64,000 bases of DNA. Origin: Tropicimonas sediminicola (lineage in GTDB: Bacteria; Pseudomonadota; Alphaproteobacteria; Rhodobacterales; Rhodobacteraceae). The number at the start of each line of letters is the position of its first letter. The first letter of the stretch is position 1. The translations under genes and the position numbers were made by a program. The notes under the pieces are model-generated. The model ran no database searches, was not told the origin of the DNA, and saw nothing but the letters and a program-made list of their open reading frames with translations. Shown piece after piece: positions 22,287 through 38,156 of the stretch. The stretch covers positions 124,001 through 188,000 of the forward strand of contig NZ_FZOY01000002.1 in the NCBI RefSeq assembly GCF_900188335.1. The letters are read 5' to 3'.

Positions 22287-23714
22287 ATGTTGCAGCCCAC
22301 CGGGCCATTCATCGCCATTGCACCGTCCGATTCCCACCGCGACGAGCTGAACGACCTTCCGCTGCCGGTCGCCGTTCTGTCGGTGGACGAGGCCGGGGCG
22401 CCGATCGCGCGGCTGGCCGACACCTCGCTGTCCCAGGCAAACGCCTATGCGCAGATGGTCGGGATGCTGGTCCTGAGCCCCGAAGCTGCCACCGAAGCCG
22501 CGGCGATTGCAGACGCCTGGAGCGCCCGTTTCGGGACGGACCTCCCGCCGACACTCGACCTGTCGCAGCCACAGGATGCGCCGCGGACCGCGATCCTGAG
22601 CTGGCTCGTCGCGACCCTCGCAGACGGCCGCGCCACGCAGGCCGCGCGCAATGTCCAGCTCCAGCGCGATCTCGGCGCGCTGCGCAGCGTCCACGAGGCC
22701 ACCCAGACCGCTTTCAGCCGACTTGAGACCTATGTCTACAAGCTCGGCGGCCCGGCCCGCACGCTCGCCTTTCAACTCGAGCCGATCAGGTCACGTCCAC
22801 CGGTCACATTGCAGAACAAGGACCGTGCCGAGCAGCGGTTGCCGATGTCCTCCGCCGGGCTCTCGGACGTCGCGGTCTCGATCGCCGAACGTCCGGGCGA
22901 TGCTGACGGACAACTGGATCTGTCGCTGGAACTCCAGGAAAGCGGCGAGATCGTTGCCGAGTGGACCGTGCCCGCGGCCGAACTCCAGGAGGGCTGGCTC
23001 CGGCTATCCCGGGCGGTGAGCCTCGCCACGGATCGCCAGACGGTGATCCTTCGGGTCCAGTGGCAGGGCAGCAGCCAATTGAAGCTCTCCCAGACCATCG
23101 CGCATCCCGATCCCCGCTTTCGGGTCAGCCGCAACAGCGTCCCGCAGGAGGCGGTGCTGGCCGCCGCGGGGTGGTCCTGCGTGGCCGGCACCAGCCTGCC
23201 CCATCCCGCTGGCGCCTGGGCCGACCGGATCATCCACCCGCGCCGCTGGATCGTACCGACGCAGGCCCTGCGCGAGGCCCACAGCGCCTCGCCGGACGGA
23301 ACCGTCGCCTATTCCGATGCCCTCGGCGGGCTCACCGTCACCCCGACGAGCGCAGGACCCGCCATCGCTCGGATTTCCGGCGCCGGGGTGCCCGGCATGC
23401 AGCAGATCATCTGTGGCGTCGAAACCAAGGCAGACGCCGGTCCGACGGTTGAATATGCGCTGGCGATCCTGCCCGCCGAACCGGACCGCTCCGGCCCGAT
23501 CGGCGTGGCGGCGCTTGCCGCCGGGACCATGACCGATTGGGTGCCACTGCCGGTGGCCCGGTGGGCGGAGATCCAGCTTTTCCTCGAAGCGCCGCTCGAT
23601 GCGCCGAGCGACATCTGCGTTCTGACCCGCCTGCAGGAGGCCGATATCGAGAGCGAAACCGCCGTCCCCGATGACCTGCGCTGCTGTGTCTTCAACATCC
23701 GCGCCAATGCCTGA
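22287..23714 (+). CDS. Unknown protein encoded with glycosyltransferase (possibly DUF6212-type)
   Basis: The 475-residue protein has no signal peptide and no membrane segment. The first 140 residues are acidic and mostly helical (LARLADTS, ATQTAFSRLETYVYKLGGPA); the rest reads like beta-sandwich modules (DGQLDLSLELQESGEIVAEW, TVILRVQWQGSSQLKLSQ). I know of a family of uncharacterised Rhodobacterales proteins, DUF6212, that this may belong to, but I cannot confirm it. Its stop lies 16 bp before the glycosyltransferase start, so the two are surely co-transcribed. A role in assembling or modifying a surface glycan is inferred from context only. Confidence 0.7.
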   Translation: MLQPTGPFIAIAPSDSHRDELNDLPLPVAVLSVDEAGAPIARLADTSLSQANAYAQMVGMLVLSPEAATEAAAIADAWSARFGTDLPPTLDLSQPQDAPRTAILSWLVATLADGRATQAARNVQLQRDLGALRSVHEATQTAFSRLETYVYKLGGPARTLAFQLEPIRSRPPVTLQNKDRAEQRLPMSSAGLSDVAVSIAERPGDADGQLDLSLELQESGEIVAEWTVPAAELQEGWLRLSRAVSLATDRQTVILRVQWQGSSQLKLSQTIAHPDPRFRVSRNSVPQEAVLAAAGWSCVAGTSLPHPAGAWADRIIHPRRWIVPTQALREAHSASPDGTVAYSDALGGLTVTPTSAGPAIARISGAGVPGMQQIICGVETKADAGPTVEYALAILPAEPDRSGPIGVAALAAGTMTDWVPLPVARWAEIQLFLEAPLDAPSDICVLTRLQEADIESETAVPDDLRCCVFNIRANA

Positions 23715-23730
23715 GCTGTCGGAGACGGAG

Positions 23731-26424
23731 ATGACGGAGCCCTCCCCCCAACTCGCCCCGCGCATCGCGGTGATCGTGCCCATCTTTCGCCATTCGGTGC
23801 TGCTGGCCGAAGCCGTTCAGTCGGTGCTCGACCAGAGGGCGGATTTCGGCATCCACATATTCCTGGTCAACGATGGTTGCCCGCATGCGGAGACCGAGGC
23901 CGTCTGTCGAGACTACGCCTTGGCCTGTCCGGACCGCGTCACGTATCTCCGCAAGCCCAATGGTGGGCTGAGCGATGCCCGCAATCACGGCATCCGTCAC
24001 GCCATGGCGGCCTTTCCCGGCATCGAGGCGCTCTACATGCTCGACGCGGACAACAAGCTTCGCCCGGATGCACTGGCCCGCACCATGGCCGCGCTCGACG
24101 CCCATCCCGAGGCCGACTGGATCTACCCCAACATCGACATGATCGGGCTGGAATTCGCCGGCGATTACGGCGGCGACTATTCGCTGCTGGTCCACACCGG
24201 CATGAACATTTCCGAGGCAGGCAGCCTGATCCGCCGCCGGGTGTTCGACGCCGGGGTTTACTTCGACACCGATTTCAAGCTCGGGTTCGAGGACTGGGAT
24301 TTCTTCCTGAGCGCGGGACGTGCCGGGTTTCGAGGTCGGAACCTCGAGGATTTCGGATTTCAATACCGCAAACGCCCCGAGAGCATGCTCGCCGATTCCG
24401 CGCGCGACGCCGAGATGATCCGCGGAACGATGCGTCACAAGCACCGGGACCTTTTCGCCCCAGAGAGCCTGCTTGCCCTTGAGCAGGCGGAATGCCCCCG
24501 CTTCGCGATTTTCACCGCTGATACCGGAGAGGTGCGCCTCACCGTCGATCCAATGGCCGAGGCTGCCCGCCGCGTCACGCTCGACTGCTTCGAGCAGATG
24601 ATCTGGCGGCACCGCATCGCCCCCACCCGGTTCCACTTCCCGCCCTTCGTCGTGCTCGCGCGCGGCGCCGTGATGGCGGCACTGGAGAAGGCCGGCGCGC
24701 TGCGATGGGCCTTGTGGAAACTGGAATGGATGGCTGAACGCCGGGGCGTCGCCTCGCTCTCGCTGTCGACCAGTCAGAACGGCCGGTTCGGGTTCACCGA
24801 TCGCAGCACGCCGCAAAGTCTGCCTGAGACAGCCGATGTGCTTGTGGTCCGTTCGAAATGGCTGCTCGAGTTCCTCTCGGAAAAGGGCCCGGACGGTCCG
24901 GCCCCGTCCGATCCGACGCGACGGATGTACGGCGCGACCCTCGATCTGCGGCTGCCTCCCGAGACTGCCGACGCCGCATCGTCCGGACAGAGGGGCCTCG
25001 CAACGGAAGACATGCGCACGCTGTTCGGTCGCCTGCACGGCTCGCCATTCCGGGCGGCTTCGTTCAGCGGCTGGGAATGGCGCGTCGGCGATATCCACCA
25101 GCGGCCACGTGCGCACCACCTCGTGCGGGAGCCGTTCGGCGGTGCGCCGGTCTACCCCAAGATGCCGGATGGCAGGCGCCATGTCGGGCTGATCCTGCCG
25201 CTTGTAGAATTCGGCGGGGTCGAGAAGGTTGCGCTGAACATGGCCAAGGGGTTGCGCAGCCACGGCTGGGTGCCGCATCTGTTCGTCGTGGAAGCGACGG
25301 AGGGCGCAATTACCCAAGAGTGGCGGAGCACGTTCGAGAGCGTGAATTTCCTCTCCGCAGCGGATTTTGCCCTCTGGGAAGCCGACGGCGAGACCTATTT
25401 CGGCACGGACGTTCCGAACTGGGCCACGGGTGGCAACCACAGCCCTGCCCTCGGCCTCATGGGCTGGCTCGACGTGGTCATCAATTGCCATGGCGGGGCC
25501 ATCAGCGGGATCATGGGGCAGCTCAGGCGGCTCGGCGTGGTGACCGCGAATTCGCTGCACCTCAACGAGCTGTCGCCGTTCGGCCGTCCGTTGGGCAACA
25601 CCTATCTCGGGCTCGCCTACGAACACGCCTACAACCTCTTCCTGCCCTGTTCGCACCAGCTCGGGGATTGGTGCCATGCGATGGGGATTCCGTCGGAAAA
25701 GATCCTGCCCGTTCCCAACGCGCCGAGCTTTCCGGCCGATCCGGACCGGCTCGCCGTCGACCAGGCAGCCCGCAACGCGCGCGGCGAGACGGACCCGCTT
25801 CGGGTGATCTTCCTCGGGCGGCTCGACCGGCAGAAAGGCATCGACAAGCTGTCGGAATGCGTGATCGACACACGGCAGCGCGGCGTGGCGATCGATTGGC
25901 GCGTGGTGGGCAAATCGGTGATCGGCTCCGACGCACCGCCCCTGCCCGGCTACATGGAAGACCTGCTGGAACCGCCCCTCACGGAGGCCGGGGACTTGCT
26001 CGACGCCTTCGCCTGGGCCGACGTGATGGTCCTGCTCTCCTCCTACGAGGGCCTGCCGCTCACCATCCTCGAAGCAATGCGCTCTGGCGTGGTGACCGTG
26101 GCGACCGATGTCGGCGCGGTCTCGGAGGTGGTGACGGATGGTGAAAACGGTGTGCTGCTGAACGTCGAAACCGCGTCGCGGGACTGCGTGCAGGCGCTCG
26201 GCCGGCTGTCGGCGGATCGGGCGCTCCTGCGCCGCCTGTCCGACCGGGCGCGGAGCGACATGCAGGACCGGGACTGGCAGTCCGCGACCGCGCCGCTCCA
26301 CGCACGCCTCGAGCGCATGGTTGCGCCACCGGCCAAAGACGATGTCCTGACCGCGAGCAAGGGCGAGCAAGGCGAGCCGATGATTGCCGCAGGCCCGTCT
26401 TGCGGCGCCCGCCGCCCCGGTTGA
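23731..26424 (+). CDS. Bifunctional glycosyltransferase: GT2 (GT-A) fused to GT4 (GT-B)
   Basis: This protein of about 897 residues carries two glycosyltransferases. Residues about 9-230 form a GT-A family 2 domain: RIAVIVPIFRHS, KPNGGLSDARNHGIRHAM, YMLDADNKL as the DxD motif, and a FEDWDFFLSAGRAGF acceptor-site segment. Residues about 480-850 form a GT-B family 4 domain: LPLVEFGGVEKVALNMAKGL, VIFLGRLDRQKGID, and an EGLPLTILEAM E-x7-E motif. It is cytoplasmic or membrane-associated and should add two sugars to a carrier or protein. ATG 23731 has GGAG at good spacing; ATG 23707 would overlap the previous stop. Confidence 0.88.
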   Translation: MTEPSPQLAPRIAVIVPIFRHSVLLAEAVQSVLDQRADFGIHIFLVNDGCPHAETEAVCRDYALACPDRVTYLRKPNGGLSDARNHGIRHAMAAFPGIEALYMLDADNKLRPDALARTMAALDAHPEADWIYPNIDMIGLEFAGDYGGDYSLLVHTGMNISEAGSLIRRRVFDAGVYFDTDFKLGFEDWDFFLSAGRAGFRGRNLEDFGFQYRKRPESMLADSARDAEMIRGTMRHKHRDLFAPESLLALEQAECPRFAIFTADTGEVRLTVDPMAEAARRVTLDCFEQMIWRHRIAPTRFHFPPFVVLARGAVMAALEKAGALRWALWKLEWMAERRGVASLSLSTSQNGRFGFTDRSTPQSLPETADVLVVRSKWLLEFLSEKGPDGPAPSDPTRRMYGATLDLRLPPETADAASSGQRGLATEDMRTLFGRLHGSPFRAASFSGWEWRVGDIHQRPRAHHLVREPFGGAPVYPKMPDGRRHVGLILPLVEFGGVEKVALNMAKGLRSHGWVPHLFVVEATEGAITQEWRSTFESVNFLSAADFALWEADGETYFGTDVPNWATGGNHSPALGLMGWLDVVINCHGGAISGIMGQLRRLGVVTANSLHLNELSPFGRPLGNTYLGLAYEHAYNLFLPCSHQLGDWCHAMGIPSEKILPVPNAPSFPADPDRLAVDQAARNARGETDPLRVIFLGRLDRQKGIDKLSECVIDTRQRGVAIDWRVVGKSVIGSDAPPLPGYMEDLLEPPLTEAGDLLDAFAWADVMVLLSSYEGLPLTILEAMRSGVVTVATDVGAVSEVVTDGENGVLLNVETASRDCVQALGRLSADRALLRRLSDRARSDMQDRDWQSATAPLHARLERMVAPPAKDDVLTASKGEQGEPMIAAGPSCGARRPG

Positions 26425-26501
26425 ATTCGCCGGACCCAGGGCTTAGCGATGAGACAACCGGCGAGGTCCGACGCCCCCCGGAGAGCACAAGGATAGGAAA
26501 A

Positions 26502-27323
26502 GTGCCCAATATTCAGAACATCAAGGCCCCGGTCTCGCTGATCGCCCACGGCCGGTCCGGCACCTCGCTCCTGTTCAAGGCGTTCGCGGCGCGGGGGGAC
26601 ATGGACTGCGTCGGCGAGGCAGGCAACATGGTGTTCACCACCTGGCGCGCGCTCGAGCAGGTCTCGGGGCTGACGCGCTACGGCAAGGTCGAGAACCCGA
26701 ATGTCTACGGGCGCGACGCCGGCGCACTGGTTCGCAAGGCGTTCCTGACGATCTATCCGTCCGAGCGCGAACACTGGATGATGAAGCCGATCGGTACGCC
26801 CCGCATCATGTGGGACTTCCCAGGCAACGACTGGGACGCCTTCGCCACGTGGTACTGGAAGGTCTTCAACACCTCGTTCCCGCAGGCGCGCAAGTTCACG
26901 ATCATCCGCAATCCCAACGACGTCTTCCTCAGTTCCAAGAAATTCTGGGGCGGCAAGGACCTGGCGCTCTGGCGGGCGCAGTACATCATGTACAAGATCA
27001 TCGCCCACGAGGACGCCGGTCTGCGGCACATCATGCTCTACGATCAGCTGGTGGCCGACCCCGAGCCTCAGATGCGACGGATGATGGAGCGCATCGGCGT
27101 ACCGTTCTCCGACAAGATGATGAAGGCCTTCGGACAGCTTCATGTGCCGTCGGAGGGCGTGCATGTTCAGAGTGATCCCGGCGGCGCGCTTCAGGAGAAG
27201 GCCGCCAAGGGGTTCTCGCGCGAGGATGAATGGGGCTCGATCGAGGATGCCGAGTTCCGCGAGGAGGCGATGGCGGAATACGCCAAGCTGCGGTCGCGCG
27301 CGCTGGAGAACTCTGGCACCTGA
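26502..27323 (+). CDS. Sulfotransferase-family protein
   Basis: This 273-residue protein starts at GTG 26502 after an AGGATAGG ribosome site. The 5' phosphosulfate-binding loop is HGRSGTSLLFK (residues about 16-26), and the 3' phosphate-binding region is FTIIRNPNDVFLSSKKFWGG (about 130-150). These mark PAPS-dependent sulfotransferases, which move sulfate to a hydroxyl of a sugar or other acceptor. Lying 77 bp after the GT2-GT4 gene, it probably sulfates the glycan made by that enzyme. No PAPS synthesis genes are in the window. P-loop kinases can look similar, but the position of both motifs suits a sulfotransferase. Confidence 0.8.
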   Translation: MPNIQNIKAPVSLIAHGRSGTSLLFKAFAARGDMDCVGEAGNMVFTTWRALEQVSGLTRYGKVENPNVYGRDAGALVRKAFLTIYPSEREHWMMKPIGTPRIMWDFPGNDWDAFATWYWKVFNTSFPQARKFTIIRNPNDVFLSSKKFWGGKDLALWRAQYIMYKIIAHEDAGLRHIMLYDQLVADPEPQMRRMMERIGVPFSDKMMKAFGQLHVPSEGVHVQSDPGGALQEKAAKGFSREDEWGSIEDAEFREEAMAEYAKLRSRALENSGT

Positions 27324-27483: not shown

Positions 27484-28089
27484 TCAGGCCAGCGCGTGCA
27501 CCATCTCCAGCGCCGCGATCTGGCCGGGGTCTGCGATCCCGGCGGATTTCTCGCCGAACATCCGCGCCCGACCGAGCTTGTTCTGCTGCGGCTTGAATGC
27601 TTCGACGGTCTCGGCCGCCGCTGCCTCCGCCGCCGCCTGAAGCGCCGCGGGCTCGTCGAGCCCGGCGGTCGCGCGGGCCATCGCGTCCATGCTGTCGAGC
27701 ACGCATTTGTCGCCCAGGTTGCCCTTGCCGCGGGCCATCATCGCCTCGCAGGCGCCGGCGAGCAGGCCGGAGACCTCGGAGAATGGCACGGCCTCACGCC
27801 CCTTGCAGGCCTTGGCCGCCGACATGAAGCCCGTGGCGACGAGCGTGCCATAGGAGGAAGACGAGGCCCGTTGGAAGCATTTGGCGCATTCCATGAAAGC
27901 CTTGCCCAGATCGTCCGGCAGGCCCTCGGCATTGTCGGCAATCTCGCGCCAGCCCTTGGAAACGGTGATGCCCAGATCGCCATCGCCAAGGCGGCCATCT
28001 GCCTCGTTCAGCTTCGCCGCCACGCCCTCCGCGTGATCTGCGATCCGCGCCGCGGCGGCGCGCAGGCTGGCCGTGGTGAACTCTGCCAT
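27484..28089 (-). CDS. dhaL: Dihydroxyacetone kinase subunit L (ATP-binding, DhaL-like)
   Basis: The 201-residue all-helical protein has the Mg-ADP/ATP-binding aspartates in GRLGDGDLGITV near residue 33, then QRASSSSYGTLVATGFMSAA and GNLGDKCVLDSMDA as in DhaL. With DhaK it phosphorylates a triose such as dihydroxyacetone, or a related keto-sugar such as erythrulose or apulose. No PTS-type DhaM gene is nearby, so ATP is the likely phosphate donor, although PTS-linked DhaL proteins look similar. The start ATG overlaps the dhaK stop (TGATG); a GTG one codon earlier is possible. It is last gene of the LacI-controlled operon. Confidence 0.88.
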   Translation of the reverse strand: MAEFTTASLRAAAARIADHAEGVAAKLNEADGRLGDGDLGITVSKGWREIADNAEGLPDDLGKAFMECAKCFQRASSSSYGTLVATGFMSAAKACKGREAVPFSEVSGLLAGACEAMMARGKGNLGDKCVLDSMDAMARATAGLDEPAALQAAAEAAAAETVEAFKPQQNKLGRARMFGEKSAGIADPGQIAALEMVHALA

Positions 28090-29084
28090 CACACCCTCCA
28101 GAACGCGCAGTCGCAGGGCGCCTTCAGCAGCGCTTCCAGCTCGTCGTCCAGCTTGCAGAGCGTGATCGTCGCGCCGGCCATCTCCATCGAGGTCGCGTAA
28201 CGGCCGACCAGCGGCATCACGATCTCCACGCCCTTGCCGTCGAGCACGGCCTTGGCATGGCGGTAAATGATGTAGAGCTCCTCCGGCGGCGTCGCGCCGA
28301 GGCTGTTGACGAGGATCGAGCAGCGATCCCCCTGCCCCAGCGGCATGTCGGCCAGCAGCCGCTCCATCATCTCGTCGACGATCTCGTCGGCGGGCTTCAG
28401 TTCATCGCGCCAGATGCCGGGCTCGCCGTGGATGCCCATACCCATTTCCATCTCGGTCTCGCCGATCTCGAAGGTGGGCTTGCCGGCCTGCGGCACCGTG
28501 CAGGGCGAAAGCGCCATGCCGATGGAACGGCAGGCGTCGGCGGCCTTCTGCGCCACCGCCGTCACCTCGTCGAGGCTGGCCATATGCTCGGCCTTGGCGC
28601 CGGCGATCTTGAACGCATAGACCATCCCCGCCACGCCGCGGCGTTTCGCGGCCTCTTCCGGCCCGGCGGAGGCCACGTCGTCGGCCAGCAGGACGGTGGT
28701 GGAGGCGATGTCGTCCTCCATCTCCACCATCTCCCCGGCCATGTCGAAGTTCATGACGTCGCCGCCGTAATTCCCGTAGAGCCGCAGCACGCCGGCGCCG
28801 GCATCGGCATGCCGCATGGTCGCCGCCATCTGCTCGGCCGAGGGCGAGGCAAAGACGTTGCCGATGGCGCAGCCGTCGAGCAGGCCCTTGCCGACATAGC
28901 CGGTGAAGACCGGCAGGTGGCCGGAGCCGCCTCCGGTCACGATGCCCACCTTGCCGGGTGTCTTGCCGCCCGCGCGCACGATCACGCGGGGCTCCGGCTG
29001 AGCGTAGAACTCGGGATGCGCGGCGCAGAGGCCGTCGAGCATCTCGTCCACGTAGCTGTCGGGTGAATTGAGGATCTTCTTCAT
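28089..29084 (-). CDS. dhaK: Dihydroxyacetone kinase subunit K (substrate-binding, DhaK-like)
   Basis: The 331-residue protein matches DhaK: GIVTGGGSGHLPVFTGYVGK near residue 47, GNVFASPS near 75, YGNYGGDVMNFDMA near 103, and MGMGIHGEPG, in which His219 should form the hemiaminal bond with the substrate carbonyl. It binds the ketose while DhaL supplies the phosphate. The real substrate may be dihydroxyacetone, glyceraldehyde, erythrulose or a branched ketose; family members differ. It lies 27 bp after the aldolase gene, whose cleavage product it may phosphorylate. Confidence 0.9.
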   Translation of the reverse strand: MKKILNSPDSYVDEMLDGLCAAHPEFYAQPEPRVIVRAGGKTPGKVGIVTGGGSGHLPVFTGYVGKGLLDGCAIGNVFASPSAEQMAATMRHADAGAGVLRLYGNYGGDVMNFDMAGEMVEMEDDIASTTVLLADDVASAGPEEAAKRRGVAGMVYAFKIAGAKAEHMASLDEVTAVAQKAADACRSIGMALSPCTVPQAGKPTFEIGETEMEMGMGIHGEPGIWRDELKPADEIVDEMMERLLADMPLGQGDRCSILVNSLGATPPEELYIIYRHAKAVLDGKGVEIVMPLVGRYATSMEMAGATITLCKLDDELEALLKAPCDCAFWRV

Positions 29085-29111
29085 GTCACCATTTCCTTGT
29101 TCGGCAACCAG

Positions 29112-29903
29112 TCACGCAGCGTCGCCCGCGACAACGAGTTGCTTGTCCATCTCCTGGCCCGCCTCGCGAACGGCGGCCGCATAGAGCCCGATGTCGCTCG
29201 GCCCCACGATCAGCGAATGGCCGCGGCTCTGGAGCTCGCCATAGGTCCGGAGCGGCCGGCCGACGGTGCCCATCGGCTTGCCCGTCGCGCGGATCGCGGC
29301 TTCCGTCTCGCCGACATAGGCCTCGACGTCCTCCTCGGTCAGCCGCTCGAGCTTGTCGATGGAACCGGCGAGGTCGTGCGGGCCGAGGAACAGCATGTCG
29401 ATCCCTTCGACGGCCGCGATTTCGGGGATGTTGGGAACGGCGTCGCGATGCTCGATCTGCGCCAGCAGGAACAGCTCGTCGGGTGCCTCGCTGACGTAAT
29501 CCGGCCGCGCGCCGTAATGCGAGGCCCGCACGATCGGCGCGGCATAGCCCCGCGCCCCCTTGCCCGGATAGCGGCAGGCAGCGACGGCTGCCTCGGCGGC
29601 GGCGCGGTCGTTGACCATCGGCACCATGATCGTGTGGATACCGAGGTCGAGGATCCGCTTGAGATAGACATGGTCGTTCCAGGGCACGCGCACGATGTAA
29701 TGGCCGCCCGCGGCCTCGACCGCGCGCACCATCTGGACCGTCGACGCAAGGTCGCCCTGACCGTGCTCGTTGTCGATCAGAACGCAGTCCCAGCCCGCCC
29801 AGATGGCGGCCTCGGCCAGCGCGGGCGAGGCAAGTTCCTGCCAGATCGCCCGGACGGTGCGCCCTTCGGAGAGCTGCTGACGCAGCCAGTTTCTCGACGT
29901 CAT
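29112..29903 (-). CDS. HpcH/HpaI family class II aldolase
   Basis: This 263-residue TIM-barrel enzyme has DNEHGQGDL near residue 44 (catalytic His region), a GARGYAAP segment near 115 (substrate arginine), LAQIEHRDAVPNI near 148 (metal-binding Glu) and DMLFLGPHDLAGS near 169 (metal-binding Asp). Such metal-dependent aldolases cleave 2-keto-4-hydroxy acids to pyruvate and an aldehyde. The physiological substrate is unknown; 2-keto-3-deoxy sugar acids are typical. Its ATG overlaps the tctA stop by 4 nt and dhaK follows, so import, cleavage and phosphorylation are tied into one operon. Confidence 0.9.
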   Translation of the reverse strand: MTSRNWLRQQLSEGRTVRAIWQELASPALAEAAIWAGWDCVLIDNEHGQGDLASTVQMVRAVEAAGGHYIVRVPWNDHVYLKRILDLGIHTIMVPMVNDRAAAEAAVAACRYPGKGARGYAAPIVRASHYGARPDYVSEAPDELFLLAQIEHRDAVPNIPEIAAVEGIDMLFLGPHDLAGSIDKLERLTEEDVEAYVGETEAAIRATGKPMGTVGRPLRTYGELQSRGHSLIVGPSDIGLYAAAVREAGQEMDKQLVVAGDAA

Positions 29904-31414
29904 CTGGAAACCCCTTTCCGTTTTCTTCCCGCCCGCAGCATCTCGCGGATGGTCCGCAGGATCAGAAGACCCCAGAGACCGAGCGTGAGGATGCCGAGAA
30001 CGAGCGAGTATTGCCTGTCGAAGAAGCCCATGAAGTCGCCCTGGGCCTTGATCATCGAGATCATGAAGTTGTCCTCGATGATCTTGCCGAGCACGATCCC
30101 GAGGATCGCGGGCGCGAGCGGGATGCCGTTCTGCTCCATCAGGTAGCCGACCAGCCCGAGCGCGAGCACGATCCAGACCGCGGTGACGGTGCCGGCAATG
30201 GCGAAGGCGCCGACCAGCGAGAACAGCAGGATCACCGGCGCCATGACCGCGCGCGGGACCTTCAGGATGTAGGTGGAGGCGAGGATCGCAAGGATCCCGA
30301 CCGGCACCATGATGATGTTGGCCACGAGGAACGAGCCGAACAGCGCCGAGGTCAGCTCCGGCTGGTCAACGAAGATCCGCGGCCCCGGGGTCATGCCCTT
30401 GAGCAGAAGCACCCCGATCGCGATGGCGGTGACACTGTCTCCGGGGATGCCGAAGACCAGCGCTGGCGTCCAGGCCCCACCGATGGCGGCGTTGTTGGAC
30501 GAGCCGCCCGCGGCGACGCCCTCGTAGCTGCCCTTGCCGAACTTCTCGGGGTTCTTGGAGAACCGTCGCGCCAGAGCATAGGAGATCCAGGCCGCGATAT
30601 CGGCCCCTGCCCCCGGCAGGGCGCCGACCAGTGTGCCCAGCACCGAGGAACGCGCCAGCGTGCCCGGAAAGCGGACGACGATCCGGAAGGCGCCGGCGAG
30701 CGCGCGCCCGACCTTTTCGGTGATCTCGGTCACGGCTTCCTTGCGTTTCTCGAGGTTCTGCACCGTGCGCAGCACCTCGGAGAAGGCGAAGATCCCGATC
30801 ATCGCCGGGATGAAGCTGATCCCGTCGAGCAGGTCCGGCACGCCGAAGGTGTAGCGCGGATGGCCCACGGCCACGTCGATCCCCACCGAGGCGACGGCGA
30901 GGCCGATGCAGAGACTGGCGAAGCTCTTTGGCACCGTGCCGCCGCCGACGAAGATCGCGCAGGTCAGGCCGAGGCAGGCCAGCCAGAAGGTCTCGAAGCT
31001 GGAGAAGCTGATCGCGATACGTGCGAGCTGCGGCGCGATCATCATCAGGATCAGCACGCCGACCACGCCGCCCACCGCCGCGGTGAAGAGCGACACGAAC
31101 AGCGAGGTTCGTGCGTGGCCCTCCTGCGACAGCCGGTGCGCGTCGTCGACATAGGCCGCCGAGGCAGGCGTTCCCGGGATTCGCAGCAGCGTGCCCGAGA
31201 TGTCGCCGGCGAAGATCGCGGTGGTCGTCGTGGCGACGATCGCGCTGATCGCGGGGATCGGGTCGAGGAAGAAGGTGAAGGGCACGAGAAGCGCCACCGC
31301 CATGGTGGCGGTCAGCCCGGGCACCGCGCCCACGAAACAGCCATAGAAGGTGGCGATGGCGATGATCGCGAGGTTTTCGGGCGCCAGGACGGTCAGAAAG
31401 ACATCAGGGGTCAT
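29900..31414 (-). CDS. tctA: TTT transporter large membrane subunit TctA (second copy)
   Basis: The 504-residue protein has about 11 membrane segments. AVPGLTATMAVALLVPFTFF near residue 30, GTPASAAYVDDAHRLSQEGH near 82 and GALPGAGADIAAWISYALAR near 265 are TctA signatures. The C-terminal tail is basic (RAGRKRKGVSR). It forms the channel with TctB of the same operon. It shares the fold but little close identity with the first copy at about 6-7.5 kb, so the two systems likely take different carboxylates. Confidence 0.93.
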   Translation of the reverse strand: MTPDVFLTVLAPENLAIIAIATFYGCFVGAVPGLTATMAVALLVPFTFFLDPIPAISAIVATTTTAIFAGDISGTLLRIPGTPASAAYVDDAHRLSQEGHARTSLFVSLFTAAVGGVVGVLILMMIAPQLARIAISFSSFETFWLACLGLTCAIFVGGGTVPKSFASLCIGLAVASVGIDVAVGHPRYTFGVPDLLDGISFIPAMIGIFAFSEVLRTVQNLEKRKEAVTEITEKVGRALAGAFRIVVRFPGTLARSSVLGTLVGALPGAGADIAAWISYALARRFSKNPEKFGKGSYEGVAAGGSSNNAAIGGAWTPALVFGIPGDSVTAIAIGVLLLKGMTPGPRIFVDQPELTSALFGSFLVANIIMVPVGILAILASTYILKVPRAVMAPVILLFSLVGAFAIAGTVTAVWIVLALGLVGYLMEQNGIPLAPAILGIVLGKIIEDNFMISMIKAQGDFMGFFDRQYSLVLGILTLGLWGLLILRTIREMLRAGRKRKGVSR

Positions 31415-31421
31415 GTCGGGC

Positions 31422-31895
31422 CTACCACGCGATCGGTTCGAGCAGGCCCCACGGCAGCGGGACGTGCAGGAAGGAGTAGAAGATCAGGTGCACCAGCACG
31501 GTGACACCCACGGCCAGCAGGATCGATTTCAGCCAGTTGATCCCGAACAGGATCAGCAGCACCAGCAGCATCGGGAAGGCGACGAGGTGAAATCCGAGCT
31601 TGTTGAGAAACAGCGCGAAGAACACCACGCTGGCCAGCACCGCGCCGGTGTTGATCCAGGCCTGCCGGGACATCGGCGGGCTCGGCTCGGCCACGGGGAC
31701 CGCCGCGGCGCGCTTGACGAGCCCCGTGGCGAGGATCAGCAGACCGCAGATTATCAGGCCGCTGCCGGCGATGCTTGGAAAGAGCCCGGGGCCGTGCGTC
31801 ATGCCCGCGAGCGTGGGAAAGGTGCGTGCCTCAAGGACAAGCCAAGCCCCGAAGGCGGCCAGAACGGCGCCCGTGGCGACATCTTTGTTCATCAT
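31422..31895 (-). CDS. tctB: TTT transporter small membrane subunit TctB (second copy)
   Basis: The 157-residue protein has four hydrophobic segments (near residues 8-20, 40-60, 80-115 and 118-145) and the size of TctB. It starts MMNKDVATGAVLAAFGAWLV. It lies between tctC and tctA, the usual TTT order. A 12-bp stem-loop separates it from tctC and may lower its expression relative to the binding protein. Confidence 0.85.
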   Translation of the reverse strand: MMNKDVATGAVLAAFGAWLVLEARTFPTLAGMTHGPGLFPSIAGSGLIICGLLILATGLVKRAAAVPVAEPSPPMSRQAWINTGAVLASVVFFALFLNKLGFHLVAFPMLLVLLILFGINWLKSILLAVGVTVLVHLIFYSFLHVPLPWGLLEPIAW

Positions 31896-31928
31896 GGGTC
31901 AACTCTCGACGTGCGGTTCGAGAAAGTG

Positions 31929-31966
31929 TCCGGGGCAGCTGTTTGGGGGGGAGGCGCTGCCCCGGA
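31929..31966 (-). repeat. Inverted repeat between tctC and tctB
   Basis: On the plus strand GTCCGGGGCAGC-type arms (TCCGGGGCAGC at 31929-31939 and GCTGCCCCGGA at 31956-31966) pair perfectly over 11 bp around a 16-nt loop. It lies after the tctC stop and before the tctB start. There is no T tract. Hairpins at this place in binding-protein-dependent transporter operons often raise the binding-protein mRNA over that of the membrane subunits. Confidence 0.6.
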
Positions 31967-32001
31967 CTTTGCGGAATGGCATCAGACGGCGGGAACGGCC
32001 G

Positions 32002-32988
32002 TCACTTCGCCATGCCGATAGCCTTGATCGTGTCGCCGAGCGCCTGGTCGTTCTTGACCATCAGCGCCGCCAGATCCTCGCTGCCCATCAGCACCACATC
32101 GGCGCCGCGGCTGGCCTTGAAGTCGGCCCATTCCTGGGTGTCCATCACCTTGAGCGCCGCCTTCTCGTAGGAACAGGCGATCTCCGGATCCATGCCGCCC
32201 GGCCCGGACAGGGTGATGTTGGCAGCCAGCGTCCAGCCGGAAGGAAGTTCCTCGGCGGTGGTCGGGATGTCCGGCAGCGCGGCCATGCGCTCGGTGTGCA
32301 TGTAGCCCAGGCCCTTCAGCTCGCCCTGCTCGATGAGCGTCTTGGCTTCGGACTGCGCCACGGTCACCACGTCGACGCCACCGGCCATCAGCTCCTGCAT
32401 CGCCGGCCCTGCGCCCTGCGACGGGATCCAGCGGATCGCTTCGGGATCCATGCCTTCGGCATTCAGCAGGCCGGCCAGCGCCAGGTGCCAGATGCCGCCC
32501 TGCGAGGTCCCGGATGCGGTCAGCTCGCCCGGGTTCGCCTTGGCGTATTCCAGGACTTCCGTCACGGAGCCGAATTCGCTGTCGGCCTTCACGGTGAAGC
32601 CGGCCGGCACCACGTCCACCAAGGCGATGGGGGTGATGTCCTCGTGGGTCAGATCGGTCAGCCCGACCCAGTGCATGGTGTTGATCTCGACCGTCACGGC
32701 GCCGACGGTATAGCCGTCGGGCTCGGCCCGGGCGATCGCCGAATGGCCGGTCACGCCGTTGCCGCCGGTGCGGTTGACCACGTTGAACGGCACGCCGAAT
32801 TCCTGGCTCAGCAGGCTGGCGAGCATCCGCGAGTTGGCGTCGGTGCCGCCGCCGGCGCCCCAGGGCACGATGTAGGTGACGGCACGTTCCGGTTTCCAGT
32901 CGCACTCGGCCGCAGCCTGGGTCGCGAGCACGGCACCGAATCCGAGGGCCGTGGCGCCCAGCAATCTGGTCAGGTGGGTCGTCGTCAT
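32002..32988 (-). CDS. tctC: TTT transporter periplasmic binding protein TctC (second copy)
   Basis: The 328-residue protein has a signal peptide at residues 1-27 (LGATALGFGAVLATQAAA). The mature part begins with YIVPWGAGGGTDANSRMLA and VNRTGGNGVTGHSAIARAEP, the two substrate-contacting loops of the Bug/TctC family. Length is normal for the family. It captures a carboxylate in the periplasm for TctAB. A GGGAGGA ribosome site precedes ATG 32988. It is first gene of the operon, divergent from the LacI-family gene with a palindromic operator between them. Confidence 0.93.
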   Translation of the reverse strand: MTTTHLTRLLGATALGFGAVLATQAAAECDWKPERAVTYIVPWGAGGGTDANSRMLASLLSQEFGVPFNVVNRTGGNGVTGHSAIARAEPDGYTVGAVTVEINTMHWVGLTDLTHEDITPIALVDVVPAGFTVKADSEFGSVTEVLEYAKANPGELTASGTSQGGIWHLALAGLLNAEGMDPEAIRWIPSQGAGPAMQELMAGGVDVVTVAQSEAKTLIEQGELKGLGYMHTERMAALPDIPTTAEELPSGWTLAANITLSGPGGMDPEIACSYEKAALKVMDTQEWADFKASRGADVVLMGSEDLAALMVKNDQALGDTIKAIGMAK

Positions 32989-33084
32989 GGAATCCTCCCA
33001 AGATTCACACTGTTATGTGGCGTGTCCGGCGCGCGGTTCCCGTCCTCTACGGGGCCTCTTTCCACGTCCGAATAAAAGAACGGT

Positions 33085-33112
33085 AGCATTGCTCAATCGA
33101 TTGAGCAATGCT
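33085..33112. promoter_or_regulatory. Perfect 28-bp palindrome, likely operator of the LacI-family regulator
   Basis: The half-site AGCATTGCTCAATC is followed directly by its exact reverse complement, with CG at the centre as in many LacI/PurR-family operators. It lies 97 bp from the tctC start and 79 bp from the regulator start. TTGAGC within each arm could act as a -35 box on either strand, so binding would block both promoters. Confidence 0.8.
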
Positions 33113-33190
33113 GGAGTCACGGCTCTGACCGAGACGAACCGTCGCCCCCGGACAGCGCCGTCGGGAGCAGGAAAGAGGGAGGAATGCACG

Positions 33191-34207
33191 ATGACGCCCC
33201 GCGTGACACTCAAGACCGTAGCCGCCGCCGCGGGCGTTTCCGTGTCCGCGGTCTCGCTGGCGCTGCGCGACAACCCGCGAATCTCCGAAGAGAAGCGCGC
33301 CGAGATCAAGCGGATCGCCGGAGAGCTCGGATACATCTACAACCGCCACGCTGCCAACCTGCGCACCGGCACGAACGACACTGTCTCGGTCTGCGTCAAC
33401 GACCTGCGCAACCCGGTCTTCGCGGAATTCGTCACCAGCATCGAGGAGGCGCTGCGGGAGAGCGACCGGCTGGTACTGCTGTGCAATGCGCATGAGGAAG
33501 AGGAGGTCCAGGCCAGCTTCATCCGCCGGATGCTGGAACAGGGCTCCAACGGGCTTGTGCTGTCCCCGGTGGCGGGCACGCGCGCCGAGGCGCTGCGCGA
33601 GGTGGTCGGGCCACAGTTCCCGACGGTGCTGATGTCGCGCGGGCTCGATGACGACAGTTTCGACCAGGTCGTCAACGACGACCCGCTCGGCCTGCGCCTG
33701 GCGGTGCAGGCGCTGGTGGAACTGGGTCACCGCAAGATCGCATGGATCGGCGGCGGGCAGGACACCAGCACGGCACGCCGGCGCTTCGCGGGGTTCGAAG
33801 CGGGCCTGCGGGAGGCCGGTCTGCCGATCGATCCCACCCTCGTCCTGCCGACGGCGCATACGACGCTGGAGGCCGGCCGCCGCGCGATGATCCAGATCCT
33901 CGATGCGGCGCCCGAGGTGACCGGCGTGCTCTGCTTCGGCGACCTGCTCGCGCTCGGCGCGGTCTCCGCCTGCCGGGAGCGCGGCCTCGAGGTCGGGCGG
34001 GACATCTCGATCATCGGGCACGACGACATCGAGGAGACGGCCTATTTCGATCCCGCGCTCTCGACCGTGCATGTGCGCAAGCGGATGATCGGCCGAACGG
34101 CGGCGGAACTCCTATTGCAACGGATCGACGCCCCCTTCGCGCCGCCGGTCTCGCGGGTGATCGCACCGCGGCTAGTGTTTCGCGGCACAACCGGCCCCGC
34201 GCCCTGA
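33191..34207 (+). CDS. LacI/GalR-family transcriptional regulator of the TTT-aldolase-kinase operon
   Basis: The 338-residue protein has an N-terminal helix-turn-helix at residues about 6-25 (TLKTVAAAAGVSVSAVSLAL) and the hinge helix near 45-60 (NRHAANLRTGT). A periplasmic-binding-protein-like effector domain follows to the end (DLRNPVFAEFVTSIEEALRE, HRKIAWIGGG, ISIIGHDDIEETAYFDPALS). The family represses sugar catabolic operons until an inducer binds. ATG 33191 is preceded by GGGAGGA. Its divergence from tctC with a palindrome between them makes it the probable repressor of that operon and of itself. Confidence 0.92.
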   Translation: MTPRVTLKTVAAAAGVSVSAVSLALRDNPRISEEKRAEIKRIAGELGYIYNRHAANLRTGTNDTVSVCVNDLRNPVFAEFVTSIEEALRESDRLVLLCNAHEEEEVQASFIRRMLEQGSNGLVLSPVAGTRAEALREVVGPQFPTVLMSRGLDDDSFDQVVNDDPLGLRLAVQALVELGHRKIAWIGGGQDTSTARRRFAGFEAGLREAGLPIDPTLVLPTAHTTLEAGRRAMIQILDAAPEVTGVLCFGDLLALGAVSACRERGLEVGRDISIIGHDDIEETAYFDPALSTVHVRKRMIGRTAAELLLQRIDAPFAPPVSRVIAPRLVFRGTTGPAP

Positions 34208-34217: not shown

Positions 34218-36917
34218 TCAACCGAAGACGAAATCGCTGGCGTCGAGATCGGCACCAAGGCCGGTAATGGTGATCTCTGTTCCAGCGAAGCCGATGGTGG
34301 CGCGGTCGTCGCCCAGATAGCCGATCTCGAGATCCTTGTAGCCGATCCCGTCGGCAGTGATGCGGATCACGTCCATTTCCTCGAAGCCCACGATAATGTC
34401 GGCGCCGTCGTCGGCGGCGAAGACGAAGGTATCGGCCCCCGCCCCTCCGGTCAGCCGGTCGTCGCCCCGGCCGCCGTTCAGGATATCCCTGCCGCGGGCG
34501 CCGATCAGGCGGTCGTTGCCGGCCCCCCCCGAAAGATCGTCGTTGCCGGCCCACCCGTCGAGGTAGTCGTCGCCAGCCCTTCCGAGCAGGGTGTCGTTGC
34601 CGCGATCCCCTTTCAGGTCATCTCCCCCCGCTCCACCGTCGAGCCGGTCCGCCCCGTCGCCGCCACGCAGCCTGTCGGCCCCGCCGCCGCCGAGCAGCAC
34701 ATCCTCGCCGGCTCCGCCCCAGGCAAGGTCGTCGCCGGTGCCGCCGTCCAGGGTGTCGTTGCCGACGCCACCCGAAAGCCGGTCGTCGCCGCTGCCGCCG
34801 GAAAGCCAGTCGTCTCCGCCCTGCCCGGTCAGCGTGTCATTGCCCGCCTCGCCCCAGACCCGGTCGGATCCGGCCGCGCCGGTTTCGCCGGTATCGCGAA
34901 ACAGGTCGTCCCCGTCGCCGAGCCGGACCGTGTCGGCGCCGTTGCCGCCCTCGACCACGTCATGACCGTCGCCGGCGTCGATCTGGTCGTCGCCGCGGCC
35001 GCCGAAGATCTGGTCGTTGCCCTGCCCGCCGGACAGCACATCGTTGCCCGCCTCGCCTTGCAGCAGGTCGCTTCCCGCGCCGCCATCAAGGCTATCCGCT
35101 CCGCCGCCGCCGTAGAGCACGTCGTTGCCCCGGTTGCCCTGCAGCTTGTCCGCGCCGTTGCCGCCAAAAACGGTATCGGCATCCGCCCCGCCGATCAGCG
35201 TGTCGTCCCCGGCGCGGCCGACCAGCAGGTCGTTGCCCGCGCCGCCCATCACCGTATCCGCCCCGAAGGTGCCGTTCTGGAAGTTGTCCCGGAACACGTC
35301 GTTTCCGGCGCCGAGGAACACCAGGTCGCGGCCGTTCCCGCCGAGGACGAGATCATCGCCCGTGCCGGCGTCGATCCGGTCGTTCTGGTTGCCGCCATCG
35401 ATCGTGTCGTCGCCCGCGCCGCCCTCGATCCAGTCGGCGCCGGCGCCGCCGTCGATCCGGTCGGCACCGCCAAGGCCCAGCAGCCTGTCGGCACTCCCCG
35501 AGCCCTTCAGGATGTCCGCCCTCTCGCTGCCGCTGTAGGCGTCGGGCCGGTCGGCATCCGTTCCGGTGCGGGTGCCGTCAAGGAAAGTGACACGAAGGAC
35601 GCCATAGGACCCGACGGTAAACCCCTGCTGCGCGGCGGCGTTCTCCTCCCCGGCGCTGATCGTCAGCACCGGCGTCGCGCCCACCTCGTCCGCCGGCCCG
35701 TCCGCCCCGAGTTCGGTCATCCAGTAGAACTGGCCGTCGAGACCGAGCGACTCGAGGTCGAGCACGAATCTCTCCGCCGCCTCGGCGCGGGAAGCGATGA
35801 ACACCACCGTCTCCGCGCCCTTGCTGTAGACATGGACATCGCCCGCGGTGCCGCCTTCGCGGGCGACCAGGTCCATCCCCTTCACGCTGTCCGACAGCAG
35901 CCGGAACGCCTCGCCCGCGAGCGAGAGCCCCAGATCCCCCTCGTTCCCGGCCATGTTGGTGCTGTTATACTGCTGAACCGGCCAGACATAGGCCGCGTCC
36001 ACCCCCTGCTCCACCATCTCGGAGAACATCCACAGCAACGCCGAGGCCTGCTTCAGGCCCGTCTCCTCCGTCCGTCCGTTGGCGGTGTTCCACTCCGTGA
36101 TGTGGTATTCGATCCCGGCAAAGCGCGCGTCCTCCAGCCAGCTCTGCTGCCGCCCGAAGTAATAACCGAAATTCGCCAGCTCCTCGTAGCTGCCCCAGGT
36201 GTAGTAATGCGCCACGACCGCATCGATGGCGGCGACGGCCTCGTCGCTCAGCTCTTCCATGATGACGTCGTTCTGCAGATGGCCGGGATCGGTGGAATAG
36301 CGGCCGTACTGTCCGATCTGCACGGCGATCTCTGGCTCCTGCCAGCCGCGGGGCGCATCTCCGGATGCGGCGAAGTCGTCGATGGCCTCCTGCGCGGCCT
36401 CCGCGATCACGCTGGCGATCCGGGCGTATTCGGCGTCGGTCATCTCGCCAGAGAGCCAGTATTCGTTGCCGATCTCGATCCCCACGATCTCGGCGTCGCC
36501 GTACTTGCCCGCCAGCACGTCGGCGACATAGGCCTTCACGTCGGCAAAGGCGGCGTCTGACGGATGCCGGCTGCCGAGCTTGCCCTCTTCCAGCAGCGTC
36601 CCGGTCGGGATCACCAGGTTGACCCCGACGCCCGCCGCTCCGGCCTGCGCAAGGAAGGTCGAGAGCGGCAGCAGCTCGCGCATCTCGCCCCGCATCGGGT
36701 CCCATATGCTGGTCCGGTCGGGGTCGTTGATATCGAAATACCATTCGGTGATCGAACCGCCGGGATAACGGATGTTGGTCAGCCCGAGGTCTCTGATCGC
36801 CTCGTCATAGGTGCCGGCGTCCATGCGGTCGCGGTCGATCAGGAAATTGCCGCCGAACATGTCGTCGTCGACATGGCCAAGGGGGGCATCGGATTGGAAC
36901 TCAATACGGGTTGTCAT
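34218..36917 (-). CDS. Secreted RTX calcium-binding protein with N-terminal glycoside hydrolase domain
   Basis: This protein of about 899 residues has a (beta/alpha)8 glycosidase-like N-terminus (about 1-340): NIRYPGGSITEWYFD; VGIEIGNEYW with Glu152 as likely acid/base; and EYHITEWNT with Glu275 as likely nucleophile. This pattern is that of clan GH-A enzymes such as GH39/GH51. A beta-sandwich (about 345-455) follows, then some 40 RTX nonapeptides (GGxGxDxLx, about 460-825) and a C-terminal tail ending DASDFVFG. There is no N-terminal signal peptide, as expected for type I secretion. ATG 36917 (MTTRIEF) is chosen. It converges with the LacI-family gene. The glycan target is unknown. Confidence 0.88.
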   Translation of the reverse strand: MTTRIEFQSDAPLGHVDDDMFGGNFLIDRDRMDAGTYDEAIRDLGLTNIRYPGGSITEWYFDINDPDRTSIWDPMRGEMRELLPLSTFLAQAGAAGVGVNLVIPTGTLLEEGKLGSRHPSDAAFADVKAYVADVLAGKYGDAEIVGIEIGNEYWLSGEMTDAEYARIASVIAEAAQEAIDDFAASGDAPRGWQEPEIAVQIGQYGRYSTDPGHLQNDVIMEELSDEAVAAIDAVVAHYYTWGSYEELANFGYYFGRQQSWLEDARFAGIEYHITEWNTANGRTEETGLKQASALLWMFSEMVEQGVDAAYVWPVQQYNSTNMAGNEGDLGLSLAGEAFRLLSDSVKGMDLVAREGGTAGDVHVYSKGAETVVFIASRAEAAERFVLDLESLGLDGQFYWMTELGADGPADEVGATPVLTISAGEENAAAQQGFTVGSYGVLRVTFLDGTRTGTDADRPDAYSGSERADILKGSGSADRLLGLGGADRIDGGAGADWIEGGAGDDTIDGGNQNDRIDAGTGDDLVLGGNGRDLVFLGAGNDVFRDNFQNGTFGADTVMGGAGNDLLVGRAGDDTLIGGADADTVFGGNGADKLQGNRGNDVLYGGGGADSLDGGAGSDLLQGEAGNDVLSGGQGNDQIFGGRGDDQIDAGDGHDVVEGGNGADTVRLGDGDDLFRDTGETGAAGSDRVWGEAGNDTLTGQGGDDWLSGGSGDDRLSGGVGNDTLDGGTGDDLAWGGAGEDVLLGGGGADRLRGGDGADRLDGGAGGDDLKGDRGNDTLLGRAGDDYLDGWAGNDDLSGGAGNDRLIGARGRDILNGGRGDDRLTGGAGADTFVFAADDGADIIVGFEEMDVIRITADGIGYKDLEIGYLGDDRATIGFAGTEITITGLGADLDASDFVFG
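34430..35540 (-). repeat. RTX nonapeptide coding repeats
   Basis: Degenerate 27-bp units encode GGxGxDxLx repeats in long runs, interrupted twice by longer loops (near 34850-34930 and 35250-35330). They bind calcium in beta-rolls after secretion. The DNA repeats are imperfect and in frame, so they belong to the gene and are not a CRISPR or mobile array. Confidence 0.9.
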
Positions 36918-37324
36918 CGGGCGGCCTCGTGTCCTGTACCGGAGGCGCCGACGGCGGTTCGCCGGCATCCTGAACTCCCCCCGATCAGGACGCCCGCGGG
37001 CTTGGTCCCCGCTTAACGAAGCGTGGCCGCAATGTGGAACTTCGTTTAGATTTGCATCAATCTCTCGGAGAAGATCTGTCGCGATCGGATTTTGATGGAT
37101 GTTTTTCCGTTATTTTTCAGACACATGAGGACTCGCCATCACGGAACTCTCGCATCGCAAAGGTTACCATCCTGGTAACCTTGATCAGCAAGTCCGCACC
37201 GGGCCTCGCGCTGCCGGTCATCGTCTGCAACGGCGACCAGCCCACCGAGGCGTCAACGCGCGGCGTTAACCATTTGCCAAGGAAATCGATGCTAACGAAA
37301 CGTTAACGGCGTAGTCTCGGCCCC
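36918..37324. promoter_or_regulatory. A/T-richer divergent promoter region of the RTX gene and lipoprotein gene
   Basis: This 407-bp spacer is lower in GC than its flanks (for example near 37040-37130). It carries a perfect inverted repeat at 37160-37182 and, near 37266, GTTAACCAT, which resembles one half of the alphaproteobacterial CtrA site TTAA-N7-TTAA; the second half is only CCAA. I see no convincing gene here; a 90-codon frame across it has no ribosome site. Confidence 0.45.
37160..37182. promoter_or_regulatory. Operator-like inverted repeat
   Basis: AAGGTTACC (37160-37168) and GGTAACCTT (37174-37182) are a perfect 9-bp inverted repeat spaced by ATCCT. It sits about 240 bp upstream of the RTX gene start and 140 bp upstream of the lipoprotein start. 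The factor that binds it is unknown. Confidence 0.5.
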
Positions 37325-37691: not shown

Positions 37692-38156
37692 TCAGAACTG
37701 CCCTTCCTTCACCGCCTCCATGGCGACATAGGTCGAGGTGCTGGCGACGTGCGGCAGGGCCGAGAGCTTCTCGGCCAGAACCTGACGGTAGCTCACGATA
37801 TCGGAGGTGCGCACCTTGAGCAGGTAATCGAAATTGCCGGCGATCAGGTGGCATTGCTCCACCTCCGGGATCGTTCGGACCACGCGCTTGAACTCGGCCA
37901 GCGCCTTTTCGCGGGTGTCTGTCAGGCGCACCTCGACAAAGGCCACATGGGCCCGGCCAAGGCGGATCGGGTCCAGCATCGCCTGGTAGCCGGTAATCAC
38001 GCCTTCCGCCTCAAGCCGCTTGAGCCGCGCCTGCGTCGGCGACTTCGAGAGCCCGATCCGACGCGCAAGATCGGTCACCGGAATGCGCCCCTCGGCGGAC
38101 ACGACATCGAGGATGGCGTGATCGAAGGAATCGAGGGGCTGGTTGCTCCGGGTCAT
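37692..38156 (-). CDS. putR: Lrp/AsnC-family regulator, probable proline-responsive activator of putA
   Basis: The 154-residue protein has an N-terminal winged helix (DHAILDVVSAEGRIPVTDLA, IGLSKSPTQARLKRLEAEG) and a C-terminal RAM effector domain (AHVAFVEVRL, VEQCHLIAGNFDYLLKVRT). It is divergent from putA across about 125 bp. In Rhodobacter and Agrobacterium an Lrp-type PutR in this position activates putA when proline is present; I infer the same here. Confidence 0.88.
   Translation of the reverse strand: MTRSNQPLDSFDHAILDVVSAEGRIPVTDLARRIGLSKSPTQARLKRLEAEGVITGYQAMLDPIRLGRAHVAFVEVRLTDTREKALAEFKRVVRTIPEVEQCHLIAGNFDYLLKVRTSDIVSYRQVLAEKLSALPHVASTSTYVAMEAVKEGQF

What the first reader, a model, noticed from the sequence alone, without database searches (positions are those of the whole stretch)
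27484..34207. LacI-controlled operon: TTT carboxylate import, HpcH/HpaI aldolase and DhaKL kinase
Six genes run in tight order tctC-tctB-tctA-aldolase-dhaK-dhaL (overlaps or short gaps) and diverge from a LacI-family gene. Known families: TTT imports carboxylates, HpcH/HpaI aldolases split 2-keto-4-hydroxy acids to pyruvate plus an aldehyde, DhaKL phosphorylates C3-C4 ketoses or aldoses. Inference: a sugar-acid-like compound is imported, cleaved, and the triose or tetrose product phosphorylated. No dehydratase or dehydrogenase is present, so the imported molecule may already be a 2-keto-3-deoxy acid, or the first step is elsewhere. I know of no described pathway with exactly this gene set.
Basis: partly seen in the sequence, partly recalled or inferred. 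Interest (0 to 1): 0.75.

Follow-up and report, generated by a model that had tools for sequence, protein, structure and literature searches.

The report
Acid uptake, aldolase and triose-kinase operon
A marine bacterium carries one operon that seems to take up an unknown sugar-like acid, split it into pyruvate and a small sugar, and phosphorylate that sugar; similar sets have been put together more than once in other bacteria, but the acid itself is not known.

Summary
The operon is as described: lacI diverges from tctC-tctB-tctA-ald-dhaK-dhaL across a 28-bp perfect palindrome. The same six genes plus lacI occur in two other Tropicimonas genomes and on a Nitratireductor plasmid. Two Cohaesibacter genomes have the six genes with dhaKL at the other end, from another DhaK clade (one origin rejected, p-AU 8e-58). 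DhaKL of the window's clade also pairs with DHDPS-family lyases, often beside a TTT transporter. So the aldolase-kinase coupling is well supported. Correction: the conserved core is tctCBA-ald, usually with lacI; only 6 of the 27 core operons found carry dhaKL. The imported acid is therefore probably cleaved directly, and the kinase is an add-on that captures the carbonyl product. Best scheme: import of a 2-oxo-4-hydroxy acid (2-keto-3-deoxyhexonate-like is my first guess), retro-aldol to pyruvate plus a C3 (perhaps C4) carbonyl compound, then ATP-dependent phosphorylation. No substrate is determined. Ten searches of an open-access library listed no paper on this gene set. Interesting and testable, not revolutionary.

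The parts
33191..34207 (+). lacI-family repressor, divergent from the operon; homologues 38-72% identical sit divergently beside 23 of the 26 other core operons found (not at the three Cohaesibacter loci)
   Evidence: (no NCBIfam equivalog reached)
33085..33112 (.). 28-bp perfect palindrome AGCATTGCTCAATCGATTGAGCAATGCT, probable LacI operator
   Evidence: its 18-bp core has no other match with 0-2 mismatches in the own genome and one with 3; similar CG-centred sites in 4 of 5 relatives of the Tropicimonas/Aliiruegeria group
32002..32988 (-). tctC, periplasmic substrate-binding protein of the TTT importer
31422..31895 (-). tctB, small membrane subunit
29900..31414 (-). tctA, large membrane subunit
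29112..29903 (-). class II HpcH/HpaI-family pyruvate aldolase; D44, E46, H47, R72, E151, D177 align with HpaI D42, E44, H45, R70, E149, D175
28089..29084 (-). dhaK, substrate-binding kinase subunit with GSGH56-L57-P and GIHGEPG motifs
27484..28092 (-). dhaL, nucleotide-binding kinase subunit (GTG start)

Best explanation
A LacI-repressed, substrate-inducible catabolic operon. TctCBA imports a 2-oxo-4-hydroxy carboxylic acid. The class II aldolase splits it by retro-aldol reaction into pyruvate and a small hydroxy-carbonyl compound. DhaKL, with ATP as the likely donor because no DhaM was found, phosphorylates that compound, most likely D-glyceraldehyde or dihydroxyacetone to a triose phosphate, which enters glycolysis. 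My first guess for the acid is a 2-keto-3-deoxyhexonate (KDG-like). Shown: gene order, families, active-site residues, recurrence of the modules, separate origins of the aldolase-kinase pairing. Inferred: induction, direction of flux, ATP, and every substrate.
For: Same six genes plus divergent lacI in uncultured Tropicimonas G007 and T. marinistellae, and in Nitratireductor sp. OM-1, another order. Same six genes in another arrangement in two Cohaesibacter species. DhaKs of the six aldolase+TTT operons are not one clade. Among 43 surveyed DhaK loci, 6 have the HpcH aldolase and 11 a DHDPS-family lyase close by; all 14 with a TTT nearby are among these 17. Core lacI|tctCBA-ald with no other enzyme in 14 of 14 operons of one gammaproteobacterial family. 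Catalytic residues invariant in 38 of 38 aldolase rows. DhaK substrate-site motifs kept. DhaM not found in three genomes and one plasmid record. TctC keeps G48-T49-D50 and P128, matching ligand-site residues G24, T25, D26, P104 of the alginate-oligosaccharide TTT protein 25HK. A sister aldolase in Paracoccus follows a GlcD-like FAD oxidase and a TRAP transporter, as expected if there the reduced 2-hydroxy acid is imported (the same layout in Shinella).
Against: No ligand or activity data. 21 of the 27 core operons found lack dhaKL. The aldolase and the four DHDPS-family partners tested score below every NCBIfam equivalog cut-off, so their specificities, and that the latter are pyruvate lyases at all, rest on family only. 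All seven genomes searched carry KDPG-aldolase family genes, so KDG itself might already be handled by a kinase plus Eda. At 25HK positions 164, 165 and 183 TctC differs. The 43 loci were gathered by similarity to our own proteins, so the counts are not prevalences.
Confidence: 0.6

Rival explanations
1. The aldolase uses hydroxypyruvate, not pyruvate, as its keto-acid half: a 2-ketoaldonate (such as 2-keto-gluconate) is imported and split to hydroxypyruvate plus glyceraldehyde, which DhaKL phosphorylates.
For: The fold search lists SwHKA, a hydroxyketoacid aldolase with a solved hydroxypyruvate complex, at ranks 19-24 and 26-28; the core operon has no enzyme before the aldolase.
Against: HpaI and YfaU rank higher by fold and HpaI by sequence; no hydroxypyruvate reductase or isomerase lies in the operon.
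Confidence: 0.15
2. The acid is branched: aldol cleavage gives pyruvate plus dihydroxyacetone, the classical DhaKL substrate.
For: DhaK keeps the residues for a hemiaminal with a ketose (motifs, role recalled); its solved relatives are dihydroxyacetone kinases.
Against: No abundant natural acid of that structure is known to me (recalled); this DhaK clade differs from the classical one at the residue after His56 (L instead of E).
Confidence: 0.15
3. dhaKL is an unrelated kinase for a separately imported sugar, co-located by chance.
For: At 12 of the 43 loci the DhaK sits in an operon with a sugar ABC transporter and no aldolase in it (my grouping; the script flags 9); 21 of 27 core operons lack dhaKL.
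Against: Separate joining of non-sister DhaKs to TTT-aldolase operons and parallel pairing with DHDPS-family lyases beside TTT genes.
Confidence: 0.1

Closest known systems
HpaI / YfaU / GarL class II pyruvate aldolases (PF03328)
   Same: Best PDB sequence and fold matches, about 30% identity; catalytic residues aligned and invariant
   Different: Below every NCBIfam equivalog cut-off; coupled to a dedicated DhaKL kinase and TTT importer
DhaKL(M) dihydroxyacetone kinase
   Same: Dak1 and Dak2 domains, His and Asp motifs
   Different: No DhaM found in three genomes and one plasmid record; GSGHLP instead of GSGHEP; operon partner is an aldolase
TTT transporter for alginate oligosaccharides (Vibrio sp. 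C42, PDB 25HK; PMC13390454: abstract, sections 8, 9, 27 and passages read)
   Same: TTT family; G-T-D and P ligand-site residues shared
   Different: That locus uses KdgF, DehR, KdgK and Eda after uptake; here one aldolase then a kinase; F19, S164, E165 and G183 are W, G, P and S here
KDG route by KdgK then Eda
   Same: Would end in pyruvate plus triose phosphate
   Different: Phosphorylation before cleavage there, after cleavage here (inferred)

Membership tests
TTT transporter | TctC, TctB and TctA families together | tested here: met
HpcH/HpaI class II aldolase | PF03328 domain with metal, base and pyruvate-binding residues (roles recalled) | tested here: met
HpcH/HpaI class II aldolase | retro-aldol activity giving pyruvate | not testable with these tools
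   needs an assay
A named NCBIfam aldolase (HpaI, GarL or RhmA equivalog) | score over the equivalog cut-off | tested here: not met
   best 184.9 bits against 368.8 (HpaI)
DhaKL kinase | Dak1 plus Dak2 subunits with GSGH and GIHGEPG motifs (roles recalled) | tested here: met
DhaK and DhaL equivalogs of NCBIfam | score over the equivalog cut-off | tested here: not met
   DhaK 376.1 against 406.25, DhaL 84.3 against 138.3 bits
PTS-dependent DhaKLM | DhaM subunit in the genome | tested here: not met
   0 of 4 (three genomes, one plasmid record); 3 of 14 control genomes ring
KDG catabolism by KdgK and Eda | KDG kinase and KDPG aldolase in the operon | tested here: not met
   the six genes match other families; KDPG-aldolase family genes exist elsewhere in the genome
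Four-carbon acid-sugar kinase pathways | DUF1537-type kinase in the operon | tested here: not met
   no such family among the Pfam hits of the six genes, (family name recalled)

The most novel reading that the evidence does not exclude
An undescribed catabolic strategy, 'cleave first, phosphorylate the triose afterwards', assembled repeatedly in Pseudomonadota by joining DhaKL to either of two aldolase families (HpcH/HpaI or DHDPS) behind TTT and sometimes TRAP importers, serving a 2-oxo acid with no known bacterial pathway, for instance a 2-ketoaldonate split through hydroxypyruvate or a branched dihydroxyacetone adduct.
Probability: 0.25. Interest if true: 0.7.

Novelty: new variant of a known kind. 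Interest (0 to 1): 0.5.

Why it matters
It would give a substrate class to a clade of DhaKL kinases and to a subfamily of TTT importers, a large family with few known ligands (recalled), and add a carbon source used by marine and soil bacteria. The three-protein set (binding protein, aldolase, kinase) lets the ligand be found by direct screening.

Tried and rejected
A plain dihydroxyacetone-utilisation operon was rejected: it does not explain the TTT importer and aldolase, and the core exists without dhaKL. A regulon with missing enzymes elsewhere was not supported: the operator core has one exact site in the genome and a single 3-mismatch site (the tool's reversed-pattern control found none; by hand I estimate one or two such 3-mismatch sites by chance).

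Distant HpcH homologues (about 38-45% identity) were set aside. Of the 24 other genomes with a class-level match, 15 neighbourhoods were fetched. The printed list was cut, so L115 and parts of L114 and L116 were not read. Among those read, three (L117, L120, L122) lie beside a probable NAD(P)HX epimerase/dehydratase gene (named by eye), and only L108 has a TTT. Fourteen of the 15 were long enough for the scan and show no DhaK hit over 40% identity; the short one (L118) shows none. Of 20 TctC neighbourhoods fetched, six were read: G625 is the core operon, the other five have a TTT without this aldolase. None of the 20 has a DhaK hit over 40%.

The solved relatives of the ABC binding proteins that accompany this DhaK clade did not reveal a ligand. 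The RTX neighbour's N-terminal model was too poor to use (pLDDT 46). The palindrome also scored as a terminator-like stem; an operator is preferred because relatives keep the CG-centred sequence.

Five lists were cut: 20 of 34 listed, 25 of 636, 15 of 130, 25 of 39, 8 of 10. No listed title or abstract start describes this gene set. Only listings were seen, apart from parts of PMC13390454.
Full report
Observation. The six genes and the divergent lacI are present at the stated coordinates and match Pfam TctC, TctB, TctA, HpcH_HpaI, Dak1, Dak2 and LacI above the curated cut-offs. Gaps and overlaps are 106, 7, -4, 27 and -4 bp. The window's genome is 5.17 Mb and holds a single DhaK, this one. Named relatives place it in the Tropicimonas/Aliiruegeria group.

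The aldolase. The best solved relatives are HpaI, HpcH, GarL and YfaU. A five-sequence model (pLDDT 74) finds YfaU and HpaI first in Foldseek. HpaI D42, E44, H45, R70, E149 and D175 align with D44, E46, H47, R72, E151 and D177 here. All six are invariant in 38 of 38 rows, the window's own included and the distant group too. Their roles as base, pyruvate and metal ligands are recalled. No NCBIfam equivalog threshold is reached, so the substrate cannot be read off the family.

The kinase. DhaK aligns with dihydroxyacetone kinase subunits over its length and keeps the histidine and aspartate motifs. It also stays below the NCBIfam DhaK and DhaL cut-offs. The window's DhaK and nearly all its clade read GSGH-L-P (L042 reads I), where the five other DhaKs with long flanks read GSGH-E-P. 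DhaM was not found in three genomes and one plasmid record; 3 of 14 control genomes rang. ATP is therefore the likely donor (inference).

Recurrence. Within the genus, 5 of 9 genomes carry this aldolase at 55% identity or more, the window's own included. Three have dhaKL behind it (the window's genome; G007; G201 = T. marinistellae) and two end at the aldolase (G204, G200). Four have dhaKL: T. marinistellae, an uncultured Tropicimonas (the same contig as G007 by length), Cohaesibacter marisflavi and C. haloalkalitolerans. Four do not: C. celericrescens, two Aliiruegeria and another Tropicimonas. In the two Cohaesibacter operons dhaKL stands in front of tctC and the nearby LacI is only 26-27% identical. 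A Nitratireductor plasmid has the exact order with lacI. On an Alloyangia plasmid an ABC-transporter operon with DhaKL lies directly beside lacI|tctCBA-ald.

Independent assembly. In a 53-row DhaK tree the Cohaesibacter copies nest in a clade of ABC-linked kinases (100/100), whereas the three Tropicimonas copies group apart (99/98); the Nitratireductor copy is unresolved. Holding the six aldolase+TTT DhaKs as one clade costs 261 log-likelihood units, p-AU 8e-58, in a 50-row tree from which 7 of 57 rows had been dropped. The group was set by gene context before the first tree was built, although sequence identities were already known; the test was run after that tree. In the aldolase tree the presence of dhaKL needs at least three changes, and the Nitratireductor aldolase lies in another clade than ours. 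I conclude at least two origins, perhaps three.

A parallel solution. Among 43 distinct DhaK loci with long flanks, 17 have an aldolase-type gene close by on the same strand: 6 HpcH and 11 DHDPS-family. All 14 with a TTT nearby, on either strand, are among these 17. None of the five GSGHEP-type loci has either. Examples are Proteus mirabilis tctCBA-dhaKL-DHDPS, Devosia, Azospirillum and Shinella with an added GlcD-like FAD oxidase. The ten DHDPS-linked DhaKs in the tree all fall in the 30-row clade that holds the window's (97/89). The DHDPS partners tested stay below every NCBIfam cut-off (4 of 4), so their lyase role is assumed from the family. Others have an acetolactate-synthase-like gene (3 of 43) or a sugar ABC permease (9 of 43 by the script; 12 by my reading); the remaining 11 have none of these. 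The loci were gathered by similarity and for their context, so the numbers describe the set and not nature.

The core. Of 151 genomes of the family of G625 (Halomonadaceae by inference, from the named Halomonas record whose aldolase groups with G625's), 14 have a strong aldolase match. All 14 show lacI|tctCBA-ald, and none has dhaKL inside the operon. One (G957) has a second TTT with a 42% DhaK close by on the other strand. Counting all distinct tctCBA-ald operons met, 6 of 27 carry dhaKL and 24 of 27 the divergent lacI. It is a rare module: in 385 genomes drawn from the class, only G219 besides the window's genome has a homologue of 50% or so. The core codes for a transporter and one enzyme. 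The simplest reading is that the imported acid is itself the aldolase substrate. In sister aldolases of Paracoccus and Shinella a TRAP transporter and an FAD oxidase precede the aldolase (the Paracoccus oxidase is GlcD-like), fitting import of a 2-hydroxy acid that is first oxidised.

Regulation. The palindrome at 33085-33112 is perfect over 28 bp. A related site scoring 16-17 of 18 lies in four relatives (T. marinistellae, G007, A. lutimaris, A. sabulilitoris; 0 of 500 shuffles as good). A weaker one (13-14 of 18; 3 to 22 of 500 shuffles as good) lies in Nitratireductor, Alloyangia, Halomonas and G625. No such site was seen in G204 or the three Cohaesibacter loci; G219 scores no better than chance with this pattern but has another CG-centred palindrome. 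The degenerate pattern was drawn up after seeing some of these sites. In the own genome the site is unique up to two mismatches, so the regulator looks local.

Transporter ligand. Against 25HK, the alginate-oligosaccharide TTT protein, TctC is 36% identical over the aligned part and keeps residues matching G20, G24, T25, D26 and P104. It has W for F19 and differs at 164, 165 and 183; 225 and 227 lay outside the alignment. BugD and MatC have Pro at position 24, according to that paper. This suits a hydroxylated acid but does not identify one.

Substrate. A C6 2-keto-3-deoxy acid giving glyceraldehyde is my first guess. Hydroxypyruvate-type cleavage of a 2-ketoaldonate is a real rival, because a hydroxyketoacid aldolase is among the close structural matches. 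All seven genomes searched have KDPG-aldolase family genes, a mild argument against KDG itself.

Literature. No listed title or abstract start showed this gene set (five of the lists were cut). The library is open-access only and I saw listings, not papers, apart from parts of PMC13390454.

Noticed in passing
34218-36968 (-): 916-aa protein with 18 RTX calcium-binding stretches; its N-terminal 450 residues match no Pfam family but hold IGNEYW and YHITEWN, like a clan GH-A glycosidase (motifs recalled). A 68% identical copy lies beside the operon in T. marinistellae (L071 130-2901) but was not seen beside it in G007 (L032); it could release the imported acid outside the cell.
   Followed up: partly
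23671-26424 and 26436-27323 (+): Protein with Glycos_transf_2 and Glycos_transf_1 domains, followed by a Sulfotransfer_3 protein.
   Followed up: no
37692-38156 (-) and 38143-41736 (+): Lrp/AsnC regulator overlapping the start of the divergent 1197-aa ORF, which reads like PutA (by eye).
   Followed up: no
L033-L039: The closest DhaKs outside the operon type (75-78% identity) sit with a sugar ABC transporter; its binding protein in L034 is nearest to 5bra, then 9i1m and 3d02, with LsrB proteins further down. In L033 methylthioribose kinase and isomerase genes are near (by eye).
   Followed up: partly
L231 9476-15727: In one genome of the G625 family a second TTT cluster with a 42% DhaK and a DhaL lies next to the core operon.
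   Followed up: no
L193, L194, L205: DhaKL of the same clade directly behind an acetolactate-synthase-like gene; in L193 and L194 CoA-transferase genes precede it. Possibly another undescribed pathway.
   Followed up: no
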